In this document: positions 1 to 7,556 of the stretch, one piece after another
How the letters are laid out: every line of letters begins with the position of its first letter
How positions within the stretch are numbered: the first letter of the stretch is position 1
NCBI GenBank assembly: GCA_030637775.1
Contig: DAOWFY010000072.1
Coordinates: 1-8,418, forward strand
Source: DAOVGU01 sp030637775 [NCBI: bacterium]
GTDB lineage: Bacteria; Ratteibacteria; UBA8468
Reading direction: 5' to 3'
DNA length: 8,418 bases
Position numbers and translations under genes: made by a program
Notes under the pieces: generated by a model
Told to the model about the DNA's origin: nothing
The model's input: only the letters and a program-made list of their open reading frames with translations
The model's database searches: none

Positions 1-1232
1 ACCCCCAGCGAGAGAATGAAGAAGGTAATTGTGGCTAAGGAAGGGTCATAGAGGTCAAAATCGCCAAAGGAATGAATAAGAAATCCAAAGATGGATAAGG
101 ACAAGCCTAAGAGAATTAAGGATTTTCCCTTTTGGGTAATCTTTTTTACCGCTACCCGGAAAAAATTCCACCATATCCAGAGAAAGAGAAGAAGTCCAAA
201 AATCCCACTCTCCACCCAAACCTCTAAAAAATTATTATGGGCGTGCTGGGTCTCCATGGTATAGGCAAGTTTATATCTGGCAAATCTGCTTCCAAAGGTA
301 CCGGGACCACTGCCAAAAAATGGTCCTTCCTTAATCATCCGCAAACTGGCAGTCCAGTAGCCAAGTCTGTCCTGGAAAGCAGAAGGATGGGGTAGCCCCT
401 CAAACTTAAAGAACAAAAAGAAAATAAGAAGAGAAAGGGAAAGAAACAGACCGCCAAAGAAGAGTATTTTTTTTCTTTCCTTGAAAAAATAGAAAATAAG
501 AAAGAACCCAAGAATAAAGACTAAACTGATCCAACCGCCAACCGATCTTGTATAAAAGAGACAGAGAAGCAAAAGTGCACAAATTGCCAGAAAGCCAAAT
601 CGGGAGAAAAAAGTCTTCCTTTCCATTGCCATAACTAAGCCTATGGGGAAAAGCATAATCAGGTAGCCGGCTAAGATATTGGGATAAACGTAGGTAGAAA
701 AGACACGATTGGACGAGAGTCTTGCTAAAAGAGCCTGCGGTAATTCATCCATCCGATAATGGACAGCAATAAATTCCCTGGTTGCCTCCAACCCCCAGAA
801 GTATTGGTAGATTCCATAAAGAGAGACCAGGGTCGCCGAAAATAAAAGGATAACCAGAAAACCCTTGACCTCTTTTTCTTCAATATTATTGACCACCAGC
901 CAATAAAGAAGAAAATAACTGATAAATTGAAGTGAAAGGTGTAGAGAAAGGTAGTGGCTGGAAGAAAAAGAGCTGCCAACGAGGAGAAGGAGAAGGAAGA
1001 GGAAAATGGGAAGGTCCGAAGGGCTTCTCAAGAGAGGAAAAGTTTCTCCCTTCCGGCAGAAAAGATTAAACAACCAGAGTAGCACCAGAAAGACAACTAC
1101 CAATTGAAAAATGCTATTTTGAATGGGATAGGTAAGACCATCAATAAAAGGTCGTAGAAGAATGAAGGCAAGAAGAATACCTTTAATTATTTGTCTTCCA
1201 AGGCTTATACCGGCTGCTTCCTCAGTTTTCAT
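1..1232 (-). CDS. O-antigen ligase/polymerase-like membrane protein (Wzy_C family), C-terminus cut by window edge
   Basis: The frame is open without a stop from ATG 1232-1230 to the left edge, giving 410 codons, so only the C-terminus is missing. The protein is very hydrophobic, with about ten membrane segments by eye (near residues 15-36, 42-60, 78-93, 98-117, 124-146, 181-205, 213-250, 256-275, 335-355, 373-390). The family signature is in the second half: GYWTASLRMIKEGPFFGSGPG, then HAHNN at about 330-334 before a membrane helix, as in the periplasmic loop of Wzy_C (PF04932) O-antigen ligases and polymerases. Such proteins join lipid-linked glycans, or extend them, at the periplasmic face of the inner membrane; which one cannot be told from sequence. 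The ATG lies inside the last codons of pyrD (11-base overlap), with only a weak ribosome site, suggesting translational coupling. Related bacterial families glycosylate pilins (PglL-like) or export other polymers, so the substrate is unknown. Confidence 0.85.
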   Translation of the reverse strand, partial: MKTEEAAGISLGRQIIKGILLAFILLRPFIDGLTYPIQNSIFQLVVVFLVLLWLFNLFCRKGETFPLLRSPSDLPIFLFLLLLLVGSSFSSSHYLSLHLSLQFISYFLLYWLVVNNIEEKEVKGFLVILLFSATLVSLYGIYQYFWGLEATREFIAVHYRMDELPQALLARLSSNRVFSTYVYPNILAGYLIMLFPIGLVMAMERKTFFSRFGFLAICALLLLCLFYTRSVGGWISLVFILGFFLIFYFFKERKKILFFGGLFLSLSLLIFFLFFKFEGLPHPSAFQDRLGYWTASLRMIKEGPFFGSGPGTFGSRFARYKLAYTMETQHAHNNFLEVWVESGIFGLLLFLWIWWNFFRVAVKKITQKGKSLILLGLSLSIFGFLIHSFGDFDLYDPSLATITFFILSLG

Positions 1233-2139
1233 GTAAGGAACCTACAAGTTCATTGACATCGTAAATCGCTTTGCGGAAAAGATATTTCTTTAACCCCGTA
1301 ATAATCTCCTGATAGGCATGGGGATTGACAAAAATAGCCGTTCCTAAACCAACAGCATTGGCTCCAGCAATAATAAATTCCAGAGCATCATTGCAACTGA
1401 GAATTCCTCCAGCTCCTATAATTGGCAAGGAGGTTGCTTTTCTCACCTGCCAGACCATCCTTAAAGCAATTGGCTTTATCGCTGGTCCGGAAAGCCCTCC
1501 CACAACACCTCCTAATCTTGGCGATCCTGTTTCGCTATCAATGCCCATTGCGGAAAAGGTATTTACCAGACTTAAAATGTCTGCTCCCGCTTTTTCTGCA
1601 GACTTTGCTATTCTGGTAATATCGGTGACATTAGGAGAAAGTTTAACCAAAAGAGGAAGTTCCGTTTTCTTTCTTACCGCTTTAACCAGATTAAAGGTCT
1701 CAACCTCATCCTGGGCAATAACTAAATTTTTTTTGATATTCGGACAGGAGATATTCAACTCAATCCCCGCGATCTTCTCCTTATTCAATATTTGAACAAG
1801 TTTTAGATATTCTTCACTTCCTTCTCCCGCAATACTTACTATAACCGGCGTAGAAAATTTCTTTAAGTAGGGTAGTTTCTCCTTTAAAAAAAGTTCTATT
1901 CCTACATTCGCCAGACCAATGGAGTTCAGGAGACCGGCGGCTGTTTCCACAAGCCGTGGAGGTAGGTTACCTGCCCTTGGTTTAAGGGTAATTGTCTTGG
2001 TCACTATTGCCCCTACCCTATTAATATCGATTAAATCCCTGTACTCCTCTCCATAGCCAAAACAACCACTCTCCAGGACTACCGGGTTCTTGAGAATTAT
2101 TCGCTGGCCAAGTTTTACCTTTAGGTTAATCTTTTTCAC
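1222..2139 (-). CDS. pyrD: Dihydroorotate dehydrogenase B (NAD+), catalytic subunit PyrD
   Basis: This 305-residue protein oxidises dihydroorotate to orotate in pyrimidine synthesis, using FMN in a TIM barrel in the cytoplasm and passing electrons to NAD+ through PyrK. Length fits class 1B enzymes. Visible motifs are the KTITLKPRAGN segment (48-58), the ELNISCPN loop with candidate catalytic base Cys132, VKLSPN with Lys166, VNTF at 192-195, and the FMN-phosphate loop IGAGGI at 241-246 followed by GLGTAIF. The start is GTG at 2139-2137, four bases overlapping the pyrK stop (GTGA), with a GTGAGGAG ribosome site about eight bases upstream. The immediate pairing with pyrK supports class 1B over the fumarate- or quinone-linked types. 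One oddity is that the usual Gly-Gly after SCPNxK is replaced by KNLVIAQD. The 3' end overlaps the ligase gene. Confidence 0.95.
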   Translation of the reverse strand: MKKINLKVKLGQRIILKNPVVLESGCFGYGEEYRDLIDINRVGAIVTKTITLKPRAGNLPPRLVETAAGLLNSIGLANVGIELFLKEKLPYLKKFSTPVIVSIAGEGSEEYLKLVQILNKEKIAGIELNISCPNIKKNLVIAQDEVETFNLVKAVRKKTELPLLVKLSPNVTDITRIAKSAEKAGADILSLVNTFSAMGIDSETGSPRLGGVVGGLSGPAIKPIALRMVWQVRKATSLPIIGAGGILSCNDALEFIIAGANAVGLGTAIFVNPHAYQEIITGLKKYLFRKAIYDVNELVGSLHEN

Positions 2140-2987
2140 CAGATTATCTCCTCACTATTGAAAACCGGACCATCCTTACAAACTCTTTTATACCTCTCCC
2201 TCTTTACCCTTATCACACATCCCCGACAGGCCCCTACTCCACAGGCCATATGTTCCTCTAAAGAGACCTGGCAGAAAATCCTGTGGCTTCTGGCAATTTC
2301 GGCTATCTTTTTAAGCATCTCCATTGGACCACAGGCATAAATAACGCTGGAAGGTTTAAGGTTAAAGGTTGAAAGCAAGTCGGTAACTAAACCTTTCCTT
2401 CCTAAGCTCCCATCCTCGGTAGAGACCTTGATTTCCCCACCCAATCTCTCAAATTCATCCCGGCAGAGAATATTTTCAGCTTTTTTGCCACCAATGAGAA
2501 TCGTAAAGTGAGTAACCCCCCTCCTTCTATCCTCCCCCTCAAGGGGAGTGAAGCCCCCGGAGATAGGTGGGGGTGCAATCTTCTCGGCTAAGAAATAGAG
2601 AGAGGCTACCCCTATACCGCCGGCAACAAGAATAATCTTTGCTCCTTTATCCGGCAATTTGTAGCCTTTGCCCAAAGGTCCAATAACATCTAAATATTGC
2701 CCCTTCTTCCTCTGGGAAAGGATTTCCGTCCCCTTACCCCTTACCCTATAAAGAATATCTACATTCTGTCTTTTTACTCGATGGATAGAAAATGGTCTGC
2801 GGAGTAAAGGAAAAATCTCCTGGTTAACCCCGTGAGAGACCGGAGGTCCTACGGGATTAACCTTAATATGGAGAAATTGCCCCGGTTTACTTACCCGGGC
2901 GATCTTCTCTGCTTTCAGAGAAAGTCGATAGTAAATTGCTGAGAGAAGTTCTCTATTTTCAATAATCTCCGCTTTTATCTGAAGCAT
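2136..2987 (-). CDS. pyrK: Dihydroorotate dehydrogenase B, electron transfer subunit PyrK, with in-frame palindromic insert
   Basis: PyrK carries FAD and a [2Fe-2S] cluster and relays electrons from PyrD to NAD+. Numbering from ATG 2987-2985 (283 residues), the FAD-binding RRPFS motif is at 63-67, the NAD-binding GGIG at 123-126, and a CGPMEML segment follows in the second half. The iron-sulphur cysteines are C249, C254, C257 and C270 (C-x4-C-x2-C-x12-C), as in the family. Residues about 138-159 are an extra proline/glycine/arginine-rich stretch between the GGIG helix and the HFTILIGGK strand. They are encoded by a palindromic element (2515-2574), so the protein is about 20 residues longer there than usual. 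An upstream TTG at 3002 would add five residues, but it lies one base after a good -10 box and has no close ribosome site, so the ATG is preferred. The stop overlaps the pyrD start. Confidence 0.92.
   Translation of the reverse strand: MLQIKAEIIENRELLSAIYYRLSLKAEKIARVSKPGQFLHIKVNPVGPPVSHGVNQEIFPLLRRPFSIHRVKRQNVDILYRVRGKGTEILSQRKKGQYLDVIGPLGKGYKLPDKGAKIILVAGGIGVASLYFLAEKIAPPPISGGFTPLEGEDRRRGVTHFTILIGGKKAENILCRDEFERLGGEIKVSTEDGSLGRKGLVTDLLSTFNLKPSSVIYACGPMEMLKKIAEIARSHRIFCQVSLEEHMACGVGACRGCVIRVKRERYKRVCKDGPVFNSEEIIW
2515..2574. repeat. Palindromic element inserted in frame within pyrK
   Basis: Exactly 60 bases bounded by ACCCCC (2515-2520) and GGGGGT (2569-2574). Inside are a second inverted pair, CTATC (2527-2531) with GATAG (2562-2566), and a third, CTCCCC (2532-2537) with GGGGAG (2543-2548), around a five-base loop. 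The length is divisible by three and the reading frame stays open across it. It matches no conserved part of PyrK and falls between two secondary-structure elements. Its build recalls intergenic GC-rich palindromic repeats and the Rickettsia palindromic elements that insert inside genes. That it is a dispersed repeat is inferred, since only one copy is in this window. Confidence 0.7.
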
Positions 2988-3003
2988 GTTATTGTTAGGC
3001 AAC

Positions 3004-3401: not shown

Positions 3402-3472
3402 CCCTGTGCTTTCTTGCTTCATCCCTGTTCTTGCTTTCGCAAGAAAGCACAGGGAGAACAGCAAGAACGGGG
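3402..3472. repeat. Interlocked inverted repeats between the DUF4321 gene and radC
   Basis: Arm A, CCCTGTGCTTTCTTGC (3402-3417), is perfectly complementary to A' at 3439-3454 (16 base pairs, 21-base spacer). Arm B, CCCTGTTCTTGC (3423-3434), pairs with B' at 3461-3472 with one mismatch. The order A-B-A'-B' allows a pseudoknot or alternative folds. A small 7-base-pair hairpin (3428-3434 with 3439-3445, TTTC loop) is a further choice. The flanks, TCATTCTGA before and GGAATCTCG after, resemble the borders of intergenic repeats seen in other bacteria. No run of T follows, so it is not a standard terminator. Confidence 0.7.
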
Positions 3473-3503: not shown

Positions 3504-4199
3504 ATGAAAAAATATAAAAATGGTATAAAAAATTGGCCGAAGGATGAAAGACCGAGAGAAAAACTCTTTAAGTCCGGAGAACATACATTAAGTGACACCG
3601 AGTTATTAGCCATTCTTCTCCGTACTGGCACAAAAGGCCAAAGCGCTATCGACTTAGCCAGAAGCATCATTAAAGAATTCAAAACCTTCCGTAATATGAG
3701 CCATACCGATATCCGTCAATGGAAAGAATTTAAAGGCCTGGGTCAAGCCAAAATTGCTCAGATTAAAGCGGCCCTTGAAATTGGCAGAAGATTTAGAGAA
3801 CAGGAGACAAAGGAAAAGAAAATAAAGATAACCTGCGCCAAAGATGTCGCTGATCTCCTTATGCCCAGAATGAGAGATCTAAAGAAGGAGGTCTTTAAAG
3901 CCTTGCTTTTAGATGGACAGAATAAACTTATTGATATTGCCGAGATAGAGGAAGGTTCCATCACCCAGGCAAGCCCGGTTATTAGAGAGATAATCTCTAA
4001 GGCTTTACAGAACTTTGCCGCTGCTATCATCTGTGTTCATAACCACCCCTCAGGTAATCCCGACCCCAGCCAAGAAGACAAAGAATTTACTAAAGAACTC
4101 ACCTCTGCCGGTAAGATTATGCAGATAAAAGTCTTAGACCACATCATCTTTGGCGATAACACCCACTTCAGCTTCGCCGATGAAGGGTTGATGAAGTAA
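3504..4199 (+). CDS. radC: RadC family protein (JAMM/MPN domain, UPF0758)
   Basis: From ATG 3504 the protein has 231 residues, the normal RadC length. The N-terminal part has the conserved WPKDERPREKL segment, DTELLAILLRTG and a helix-hairpin-helix near GLGQAKIAQIKAALEIGRRF (about 78-97). The C-terminal JAB/MPN domain carries the metal site VHNHPSGNPDPSQED, with H179, H181 and D192 as candidate zinc ligands. RadC was once tied to recombination repair, but that role is disputed; the fold predicts a metal-dependent hydrolase with DNA contacts. The frame is open back to a TTG at 3414, but those 30 extra codons are the palindromic repeat and match no family member, so the later ATG is chosen. The stop overlaps the next gene's start by one base (TAATG). 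Confidence 0.93.
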   Translation: MKKYKNGIKNWPKDERPREKLFKSGEHTLSDTELLAILLRTGTKGQSAIDLARSIIKEFKTFRNMSHTDIRQWKEFKGLGQAKIAQIKAALEIGRRFREQETKEKKIKITCAKDVADLLMPRMRDLKKEVFKALLLDGQNKLIDIAEIEEGSITQASPVIREIISKALQNFAAAIICVHNHPSGNPDPSQEDKEFTKELTSAGKIMQIKVLDHIIFGDNTHFSFADEGLMK

Positions 4200-5893: not shown

Positions 5894-6694
5894 ATGACAC
5901 CTAAAAATACATTAAAGATATTGGGGCCTATAGAGACCAATATTGTGGCTCGTTTAACGTACGAGAAAAAGACGATTGTCACGACGGAAGATTTTGACAG
6001 CTTATTTAACCTTTCTCCCAATAATAGAAAACAGGTAGTTTTTCGCCTCAAAAAGAAAAAGATACTAACACCGATAAAACACGGAGTATATGCTTTCTCG
6101 CCACTGGAAGCTGGTCCTGAAGGAACAGGGGTAGATGAGCTTCTTATTCCACCACTATTCTTTCCCAAGAAAAACTACTATGTCGGATACTCGACCATGT
6201 TCAATTATTACGGTTTTACCGAACAGCTTTTTCAGACTGTGTATGTTCTTAATACCACGAAGCGTATGGAGAGGACAATTTGCGGCCTATCGTATAAATT
6301 TATAAGAATTCCTCAAAGCCGTATGTATGGGATAGAAAGAATAAAGGTAAAAGATACGGAAATAAACATTAGCTCAAAAGAGAGGACGCTGATAGATCTT
6401 CTTTATTTTAATAAACCAGTTGGGGGGATTACCATCGCTGTTGAGATATTTACGGAAATTGTAAAAAATAATAAATGTGACATAAAGAAGCTTATTAAAT
6501 ATGCGTCAAGTTTTCCAAATATTACAACCAGAAAGCGCATAGGGTTAATATTTGAGGGTGCGGGAATTACTGAAAACATTTTAAGGCCGCTTGTGAAAAG
6601 TGTAGAGAAAACAGCGGTCAGTTCGTTTGATGGATCGCGCAAAGGCACTCTAAATAAAAAATGGAGAGTTATAATCAATGATTCACGAAAATAA
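5894..6694 (+). CDS. abiEi: Type IV toxin-antitoxin antitoxin, AbiEi family
   Basis: This 266-residue protein has the AbiEi layout. The N-terminal winged helix-turn-helix spans about 12-70 and ends in the signature LKKKKILTPIKHGVYAF. A second domain follows, with YVGYSTMFNYYGFTEQ (96-111) and the conserved SSKERTLIDLL (160-170). The C-terminal 60 residues are basic. In known AbiE systems this protein represses the operon through inverted repeats and counters the toxin without needing direct binding to it (type IV). An AGGAG site lies seven bases before ATG 5894, and a promoter with an inverted repeat is just upstream. The last 17 bases overlap the toxin gene, as is usual for a coupled pair. 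Length is normal and no frame break is seen. The protein is cytoplasmic. In other bacteria such pairs give phage resistance or stabilise mobile DNA. Confidence 0.88.
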   Translation: MTPKNTLKILGPIETNIVARLTYEKKTIVTTEDFDSLFNLSPNNRKQVVFRLKKKKILTPIKHGVYAFSPLEAGPEGTGVDELLIPPLFFPKKNYYVGYSTMFNYYGFTEQLFQTVYVLNTTKRMERTICGLSYKFIRIPQSRMYGIERIKVKDTEINISSKERTLIDLLYFNKPVGGITIAVEIFTEIVKNNKCDIKKLIKYASSFPNITTRKRIGLIFEGAGITENILRPLVKSVEKTAVSSFDGSRKGTLNKKWRVIINDSRK

Positions 6695-7556
6695 AGATGA
6701 ATTTATAAAATCTTTGGAAAGAGCGTCAAGAAAAAAAGGATTTTTACTGTCTCTGACAGAAAAGGATTATTACTTGACGCTGATTCTGTCCCGGGTGCAC
6801 GAACTTTCTGAAAATCTTATTTTTAAAGGAGGGACGTGCCTGAATAAAGTGTATTATGTTTATTACCGCTTGAGCGAGGACCTTGATTTCAGCATGGCGC
6901 TTCCTCAGTACGAGGCAACGCGTGGCCAAAGACATAAGTGTATCCAGCCGGTTAAAGACAAAATCGAGAAGTTTGTTGAACAGTTTGGGATGAGGATAGA
7001 TGACGCCGGTAATCCCGGACGTAATGAATCTAAGCAGTATATATACTACTTCGTATACCAATCAGCATTGCGGGAAATGGAAGCAAAAATCAAGTTTGAG
7101 ATAGGTTTAAGATTTAATCCGATCGACCCAGTAGAAAAGCGTCAGGTTCAGCACGTCTTCTTACATCCCTTTACCGGAGATCCTCTTTTCGATGGGGGCA
7201 AAATTAATTGTTTATCGCTGAATGAATTAATAGCAGAGAAATTGCGTGCTAGCGCTATACGGATAAAAGTTGCGCCACGAGATTTCTACGATCTCGATTT
7301 TGTTATACGTAATGGATTTGATTTGACAAATAAAGATGTCATAAAACTTTTTAAGAATAAACTTGAAGAAGATGGCGCAGATACAGATTTAGGAAACTAT
7401 CGGGTAAACCTTGGAAGGCCGACTGCCGAAATTAATGATATGCGATCACGTATTAAAGAAGAGCTGTTTGAAGTCTTAACGCCGAAGGAACGTGAAAATT
7501 TTAACCTCAACACCGCGCTTGAGAGAATTAATAAGGTGATGGAAAAAGTGACATAA
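6678..7556 (+). CDS. abiEii: Type IV toxin-antitoxin toxin, AbiEii nucleotidyltransferase
   Basis: This 292-residue protein belongs to the AbiEii/AbiGii nucleotidyltransferase toxins. The polymerase-beta-like active site is clear: FKGGTCL (49-55), then RLSEDLDFS (64-72) with D68 and D70 as metal-binding aspartates. KIKFEIG (137-143) gives a further acidic strand. The later conserved block ELIAEKLRA (183-191) is followed by PRDFYDLDFV (200-209), typical of the family. All key residues are present, so the toxin looks intact. Characterised AbiEii relatives (for example mycobacterial MenT) transfer nucleotides, in some cases to tRNA 3' ends; the target here is unknown. ATG 6678 sits inside the end of abiEi, and a GGAGAG site nine bases upstream supports it. 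A 50-base gap separates it from the next gene. Confidence 0.9.
   Translation: MIHENKDEFIKSLERASRKKGFLLSLTEKDYYLTLILSRVHELSENLIFKGGTCLNKVYYVYYRLSEDLDFSMALPQYEATRGQRHKCIQPVKDKIEKFVEQFGMRIDDAGNPGRNESKQYIYYFVYQSALREMEAKIKFEIGLRFNPIDPVEKRQVQHVFLHPFTGDPLFDGGKINCLSLNELIAEKLRASAIRIKVAPRDFYDLDFVIRNGFDLTNKDVIKLFKNKLEEDGADTDLGNYRVNLGRPTAEINDMRSRIKEELFEVLTPKERENFNLNTALERINKVMEKVT

What the first reader, a model, noticed from the sequence alone, without database searches (positions are those of the whole stretch)
2515..2574. A palindromic repeat has been inserted in frame into pyrK
A 60-base stretch with three nested inverted pairs (ACCCCC/GGGGGT, CTATC/GATAG, CTCCCC/GGGGAG) lies inside an intact, essential-pathway gene. 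It adds 20 codons with no stop, in a loop between the NAD-site helix and the next strand. Self-similar elements that enter genes without breaking them are well described mainly in Rickettsia. Here it would be a protein-tolerated mobile element in a different lineage, and possibly a source of new protein sequence.
Basis: partly seen in the sequence, partly recalled or inferred. Interest (0 to 1): 0.7.

Follow-up and report, generated by a model that had tools for sequence, protein, structure and literature searches.

The report
Mobile palindromic repeat inside pyrK gene
A short self-complementary DNA repeat, present in dozens of copies in this uncultured bacterium and its relatives, has jumped into the pyrK gene and into many other core genes without breaking their reading frames, so that it should be translated as an extra loop; this habit was known mainly from Rickettsia, Wolbachia and a few other bacteria.

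Summary
Confirmed. The stretch at 2516-2574 is a dispersed repeat: 18 further matches in its own genome; model R1 gives 28, 60, 6 and 40 matches at E<=1e-6 in the four genomes of its family. PyrK of three relatives lacks it; the G000 loop is 17-20 codons longer. Of 142 copies in fetched pieces, 58 lie in frame and open inside 49 ORFs, among them alaS, valS, gatB, carB, murF, topA, recJ, polA, etfA and lon; 44 of 48 ORFs scanned match Pfam. Where both flanks are coding on one strand, the frame is kept in 60 of 71 cases (one third expected; p 8e-19). In PyrK the insert is a low-confidence loop between a helix and a strand. Copies tend to lie 3' of AANTTAC (64 of 105 within one mismatch; background 0.7%); the motif is already at the empty junction at three of six alignable sites. 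No target duplication was found. This resembles IS200/IS605 (Y1/HUH) insertion, but no matching transposase was found. Closest kinds: Rickettsia and Wolbachia palindromic elements, intragenic REPs. A new member of a known kind, unusually common in core genes.

The parts
2516..2574 (-). palindromic repeat copy (asymmetric variant), read in frame as PyrK residues about 142-162
   Evidence: 18 further matches in own genome; model R1 match 2515-2578, E 1.5e-19; absent from PyrK of G001, G002, G003
2575..2581 (-). place of the putative target motif 5' of the element (minus strand AGATTGC here, 2 mismatches to the consensus AANTTAC; the empty site in G001 and G002 reads AACTTAC)
   Evidence: logo of right ends; empty-site alignment; counts
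2136..3002 (-). pyrK, electron-transfer subunit of dihydroorotate dehydrogenase B, host gene of the insert
   Evidence: ORF without stop; PDB 5ksw_B E 1.6e-32; Pfam DHODB_Fe-S_bind and NAD_binding_1, the latter spanning the insert; AlphaFold model mean pLDDT 81.9
1222..2139 (-). pyrD, partner gene overlapping the end of pyrK (context only)
   Evidence: Pfam DHO_dh E 2.1e-73

Best explanation
The segment is one copy of a dispersed, non-autonomous palindromic repeat family (about 40-80 bases, mostly 50-75) that spreads through the genomes of this uncultured lineage. SHOWN: copies occur in and between genes; PyrK orthologues lack it; copies inside genes are overwhelmingly in frame and open; in PyrK it falls between a helix and a strand of the NAD domain. 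INFERRED: it moved in as selfish DNA; insertions that shift the frame or carry a stop are mostly lost; those in tolerant loops persist (some sites are shared between species or genera) while the arms are remodelled, perhaps by template switching between the inverted repeats. MOST LIKELY MOBILISER (inferred, about 0.35 on its own; lowered from 0.4 after my recount of the empty sites): a Y1/HUH single-strand transposase acting in trans, inserting 3' of an AANTTAC-like target without target duplication, as IS608 does at TTAC.
For: Repetition: 19 matches in own genome; R1 at E<=1e-6 in 14 of 35 class genomes, 28/60/6/40 matches in the four f1 genomes (at most 147 candidates per genome were scored, and a palindrome can match on both strands). 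Absence: PyrK DNA of G001, G002, G003; AlaRS of G002 and G003 and RecJ of G003; CarB of G000, 95% identical to the G001 protein that carries a copy; GatB of G003 and ProC of G001. Frame: 58 of 142 copies in frame and open in 49 ORFs; 60 of 71 with coding flanks on one strand keep the frame (p 7.7e-19 against 1/3). Real genes: 44 of 48 ORFs scanned match Pfam; 23 copies in 19 genes lie inside a single best Pfam stretch (my count). Structure: residues 147-159 pLDDT <50 between H128-141 and E165-171; model matches 5ksw_B, TM 0.79/0.86. Target: 64 of 105 copies within one mismatch of AANTTAC, background 0.70% of 904,358 windows; empty sites PyrK 0 mismatches in G001 and G002, GatB 1 in G003, ProC 1 in G001. 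IS608 inserts 3' of TTAC (PMC5934647, passages).
Against: The mobiliser is not identified: the two Y1 genes of G000 have their own 24- and 28-base inverted repeats, unrelated to the element, and none of 16 Y1 loci holds a convincing copy (best E 0.0094). The motif is not universal: 26 of 105 copies have 3 or more mismatches; three of six alignable empty sites lack it (CarB 3 mismatches, AlaRS 5 in G003, EtfA 3 in G005), and in GatB the relatives G005 (4 mismatches) and G004 do not show it; CarB and EtfA lack a good motif in the filled site too (2 mismatches each), as does PyrK itself (2). Same-strand frame changes are somewhat commoner at the elements (11 of 135) than at random windows (20 of 600), so some host genes may be broken. 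Translation is not shown. The gene calls rest on my own coding model, which calls only 276 of 600 random windows in frame. All genomes are fragmented bins, contamination up to 5%.
Confidence: 0.88

Rival explanations
1. Ordinary PyrK sequence that happens to be GC-rich and palindromic.
For: This copy alone folds no better than shuffles.
Against: 18 further matches in the genome; absent from PyrK of three close relatives and gapped in 10 distant ones.
Confidence: 0.01
2. A REP element mobilised by a RAYT (REP-associated Y1 transposase), a true member of the GTAG/CGTC REP families.
For: Y1 transposase genes occur in all four f1 genomes (2, 4, 1, 1). REPs are known inside genes, repair genes and tRNA synthetases among them (PMC3733652 section 15). 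Some copies contain GTAG at the base of the right arm (for example C85 and C5; about a quarter of 104 by the logo).
Against: The commoner form there is GATAGG, inside the element and not at its end; the element is longer than the 20-40 bases given for REPs; no element copy was found at 16 Y1 loci, and the Y1 loci of G000 have other flanking repeats.
Confidence: 0.15
3. A MITE moved by an unknown DDE transposase.
For: Imperfect terminal inverted repeats (C-rich start, G-rich end); in G003 some copies abut or lie within longer inverted-repeat arms.
Against: No consistent target duplication: over 648 combinations of offset and length in 78 copies the best is 6 of 78 against 0.7 expected, then 4 against 0.5 at an unrelated combination; the conserved flank is on one side only.
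Confidence: 0.25
4. The insert is retained because it is useful to the protein (domesticated), and not merely tolerated.
For: Five sites are shared across genomes (glycosyltransferase in G000/G001/G002; the L112 gene in G000/G001/G003; TolC and M28 peptidase in G000/G001; Lon in G001/G003).
Against: Copies sit in many unrelated proteins and in three reading phases (28, 8, 6; 16 others not assigned); at shared sites the inserted sequence differs (TolC, glycosyltransferase); low model confidence of the PyrK insert.
Confidence: 0.07
5. Assembly or binning artefact at repeats.
For: All genomes are fragmented bins; 7 of 142 copies lie at contig or locus ends.
Against: Same-site copies in separately assembled genomes and frame kept in 60 of 71 cases are not expected of misassembly.
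Confidence: 0.02

Closest known systems
Rickettsia palindromic elements (RPE; Ogata et al. 2000, 2002, known here from the review PMC10969869, passages, and recall; the 2002 paper is not held)
   Same: Dispersed palindromes inserted in frame into many unrelated genes
   Different: RPEs are about 150 bp by that review; this element is mostly 50-75 bp, in another lineage, with an AANTTAC-like site preference. Sequence relation to RPEs was not tested
Wolbachia palindromic elements (WPE; Ogata 2005, cited in PMC4224334, passages seen)
   Same: In-frame insertions in conserved genes (addA, addB, priA)
   Different: Different host; the palindromic regions listed there span about 170-840 nt; one carries a stop in some strains
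GTAG / CGTC REPs and RAYTs (PMC3733652, passages and section 15)
   Same: Short palindromes, some inside genes incl. repair genes and tRNA synthetases, often adding 20-30 residues; Y1 transposases in the same genomes
   Different: No GTAG/CGTC end tag, longer, not found beside the Y1 genes; most REPs are intergenic by that paper
IS200/IS605 elements such as IS608 (PMC5934647, passages)
   Same: Insertion 3' of TTAC; terminal hairpins; no target duplication seen here
   Different: No TnpA-encoding element with these ends was found; the motif here is looser and absent at some sites

Membership tests
RPE/WPE-like protein-coding palindromic elements (as a kind) | Dispersed palindromic repeat in many copies | tested here: met
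   4 of 6 copies fold at z -2.58 to -3.22, the window copy does not
RPE/WPE-like protein-coding palindromic elements (as a kind) | Inserted in frame in unrelated genes and absent from orthologues | tested here: met
   58 of 142 copies in frame; empty orthologues
Rickettsia RPE families (by descent) | Sequence similarity to an RPE family | not tested
   no RPE sequence was compared; Rfam gave no match in the window, weak evidence only
REP (GTAG/CGTC) | GTAG or CGTC tetranucleotide at one end of a 20-40-base hairpin | tested here: not met
   right end GATAGGTGGGGGTGTAANTT, left end TCCCCC; GTAG in about a quarter of copies, internal
REP (GTAG/CGTC) | Flanks a RAYT gene | tested here: not met
   0 of 16 Y1 loci with a match better than E 0.009; bins are incomplete
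MITE | Terminal inverted repeats | tested here: inconclusive
   imperfect, variable arms
MITE | Target-site duplication | tested here: not met
   no consistent duplication in 78 copies; none in the CarB empty/filled pair
IS200/IS605-derived non-autonomous element | Fixed short target immediately 5' of the element, no duplication | tested here: inconclusive
   64 of 105 copies within one mismatch of AANTTAC; at the empty junction in 3 of 6 alignable sites
IS200/IS605-derived non-autonomous element | Shares ends with a TnpA-encoding element | tested here: not met
   16 Y1 loci searched, 9 looked at, 2 for flanking repeats; bins incomplete, so absence is weak

The most novel reading that the evidence does not exclude
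An uncultured lineage in which a single-strand-mobilised palindromic element inserts next to TTAC-like sites and can be read through in all three phases of one orientation, so that its copies sit inside open reading frames about as often as random positions do (58 of 135 non-edge copies against 276 of 600 random windows), and in which arm remodelling by template switching keeps renewing the inserted loops of essential enzymes: a standing source of new protein sequence that works through nearly neutral insertion.
Probability: 0.25. Interest if true: 0.8.

Novelty: new member of a known kind. Interest (0 to 1): 0.55.

Why it matters
In-frame palindromic insertion is best known from intracellular Rickettsia and Wolbachia, where small populations and genome decay are the usual explanation (my recall). 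Here it is in an unrelated uncultured lineage whose way of life I do not know; its one relative with a public name is the record CSMAG_1143 (I read the name as a cold-seep bin). In the window's own genome 14 of 29 merged copies are in frame in genes such as alaS, recJ, etfA and pyrK. With empty and filled orthologues about 75-95% identical, the lineage makes it testable which loops accept some 20 foreign residues, what the target rule is, and whether inserts are later used.

Tried and rejected
Ordinary PyrK sequence: rejected. True REP/RAYT membership: not met. MITE with target duplication: no consistent duplication. Rfam family: none in the window at gathering scores. Spread by phages: one exact degenerate 36-base consensus, 0 matches in viral contigs, a weak test. 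Other inserts that fill the same loops in relatives were looked for as further repeat families in the loci held: the AlaRS insert of G001 matched nothing else, the RecJ insert of G001 only an 18-base stretch, the ValS middle insert two partial matches. AANTTAC as part of the element itself: disfavoured by the PyrK, GatB and ProC empty sites, not excluded. ValS failed as a test of empty sites, because its loops hold other inserts in G003 and G004. The heptosyltransferase and RecJ empty sites could not be aligned across the junction.

Rows dropped: the longest-ORF rule picked a wrong ORF for G006 (AlaRS) and G008 (RecJ), for G002 (ValS), and for GatB of G003 and G004 and EtfA of G004; the G000 ValS was partial, with no residues at the sites compared. 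GatB of G003 was redone, GatB of G004 only read; EtfA of G004 was not recovered (one search read a wrong strand).

Literature searches. None listed this element, but I had no name or sequence to search by, so I do not claim that it is unpublished.

Full report
WHAT IS THERE. The 60-base stretch exists as described within an uninterrupted pyrK on the minus strand. The ORF ends with the Fe-S domain of dihydroorotate dehydrogenase B (Pfam), and its nearest solved relatives are DHODB electron-transfer subunits (5ksw_B, 1ep3_B). Alone, the copy is not a better hairpin than dinucleotide shuffles (z -0.84, -0.58). The evidence is repetition: a 91-base query finds 19 places in the own genome, itself included, the best others at 92-93% identity over 59 bases.

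THE FAMILY. Aligning 19 copies shows a C-rich left end, a central hairpin and a G-rich right end, with a long nested-hairpin form (C116, one of the two C53 copies, C85) and shorter symmetric or asymmetric forms; the pyrK copy is asymmetric. Of six copies folded, four do clearly better than shuffles (z -3.07, -2.58, -3.09, -3.22) and two do not (-0.40, -0.58). A sequence-only model (R1, 15 copies) finds 28, 60, 6 and 40 matches at E<=1e-6 in the four family-f1 genomes G000-G003, and at least one in 14 of 35 genomes of the class (at most 147 candidates per genome were scored, and a palindrome can match on both strands). The only related public record by PyrK at high identity is DAOVGU010000171.1, 'bacterium isolate CSMAG_1143'; I equate it with G001 contig C8, which has the same length of 14,889 bases. 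The phylum was not established.

INSERTION, NOT ANCESTRAL SEQUENCE. PyrK of G001, G002 and G003 lacks the segment; by my count the G000 loop is 17 codons longer than in G001 and G002 and 20 longer than in G003. G001's pyrK changes frame further downstream in its assembly. Ten distant PyrK proteins have gaps of 14-23 columns there. Other pairs: CarB of G000 is 95% identical to the G001 protein that carries a copy and lacks it; GatB (G001 filled, G003 and G005 empty) and ProC (G003 filled, G001 empty); AlaRS and RecJ of G000 against relatives, where G001 has other inserts in the same loops.

IN FRAME, MANY TIMES. I fetched stretches around the better hits, not all hits, merged 144 places (142 in G000-G003) and classified each of the 142 with a hexamer coding model trained on 184 long ORFs: 58 in frame and open through the element, 11 same-strand frame changes, 2 same frame with a stop, 1 opposite strands, 38 coding on one side only, 25 neither, 7 at ends. 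By genome the in-frame share is 14 of 29, 25 of 62, 4 of 6 and 15 of 45. Three of the in-frame pairs (G001 C34 and C38, G003 C124) lie about 50-65 bases apart and are probably double elements, so the 58 copies are about 55 insertions. Among the 71 cases with coding flanks on one strand the frame is kept in 60 (p 7.7e-19 against one third). In a control, 276 of 600 random windows in the same loci are called in frame, 20 same-strand frame change and 1 with a stop; so copies are in frame about as often as random places (58 of 135 non-edge), which gives no sign of strong avoidance of genes, but frame changes are somewhat commoner (11 of 135): some may be gaps between genes, some broken genes. The 58 lie in 49 ORFs. 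Pfam was run on 48 of them (the G001 M28 ORF was left out; ribD was scanned from an inner start): 44 match a family, and by my count 23 copies in 19 genes lie inside one best-scoring Pfam stretch. Genes include alaS, valS, pheT, gatB, carB, murF, queA, topA, proC, polA (two places), recJ (two places), an mfd-like gene, etfA, lon, moeA, lnt, ribD, tolC and glycosyltransferases (several names are my reading of the Pfam matches and sequences).

PLACE IN THE PROTEIN. The PyrK model (11-sequence alignment, mean pLDDT 81.9) keeps the DHODB fold (5ksw_B, TM 0.79/0.86); residues 147-159 have pLDDT below 50, between helix 128-141 and strand 165-171. The insert is best described as a flexible loop.

HOW IT MIGHT MOVE. 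The right end continues into a conserved TGTAANTT, read on the other strand as AANTTAC before ACCCCC. Of 105 copies with a clear start, 41 match exactly and 64 within one mismatch, 26 have three or more; background 0.04% and 0.70%. At six sites an empty orthologue can be aligned across the junction. The motif is there with 0 mismatches for PyrK in G001 and G002 (2 in G003), 1 for GatB in G003 (4 in G005; G004 has another loop) and 1 for ProC in G001. It is not there for CarB (3 in G000), AlaRS (5 in G003) and EtfA (3 in G005) (alignments read by eye). No consistent target duplication was found in 78 copies. IS608 inserts 3' of TTAC, which stays in the left flank (PMC5934647, passages). I therefore favour a Y1/HUH transposase in trans, at about 0.35. 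Against it: the Y1 genes of G000 have their own inverted repeats, one Y1 gene of G001 stands beside a different G-rich repeat, and none of 16 Y1 loci bears the element.

AFTERLIFE. Five insertion sites are shared between genomes. At TolC, G000 has a 73-base form and G001 a 52-base form with two nearly identical arms; at the glycosyltransferase three genomes have three different forms. Arm homogenisation by template switching is reported for inverted repeats in yeast genes (PMC8604942, abstract) and would explain this; a new insertion at the same site is not excluded.

KNOWN KINDS. In-frame palindromic elements: Rickettsia (review PMC10969869, passages), Wolbachia (PMC4224334, passages) and intragenic REPs incl. 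repair genes and tRNA synthetases (PMC3733652, passages and section 15). The present family works like these; by descent it was not tied to any of them.

Noticed in passing
window 3402-3454: Perfect 16-base inverted repeat (21 bases between the arms) upstream of radC, possibly a terminator or another repeat; copies elsewhere were not looked for.
   Followed up: no
window 5894-7556: An AbiEi / AbiEii-like gene pair by Pfam, a candidate type IV toxin-antitoxin or abortive-infection system.
   Followed up: no
L058:2442-2465 and 3602-3625; L059:1937-1964 and 2926-2953: Both Y1 transposase genes of G000 are framed by 24- or 28-base inverted repeats containing GGGGTCAG; the same repeat end lies in the open gcvT-like gene of G000 next to a copy of the element (L043:1355-1378).
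   Followed up: partly
L043:1247-1310, L044:40-103, L143:412-473: A 64-base sequence joined to one half of the element recurs almost unchanged at three places in G000 and G001, at least two of them inside open genes: a composite element.
   Followed up: partly
L222 (AlaRS of G001), L234 (RecJ of G001), L245 (ValS of G001): AlaRS and RecJ of G001 hold different, palindrome-bearing inserts in the loops where G000 holds the element; ValS of G001 has a further insert of another repeat type.
   Followed up: partly
L274 (CarB of G002), L246 (ValS of G003): AT-rich insert made of repeated AAAATTC units in the CarB loop of G002, and a similar-looking peptide in ValS of G003.
   Followed up: no
L178, L189, L169 (G003): Copies of the element beside or within longer arms beginning ACCAATTTGACGTCA, as if nested in another element.
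   Followed up: no
L060 (G001:C8), about 2680: pyrK of G001 changes frame near query codon 213: assembly error or decaying gene.
   Followed up: no
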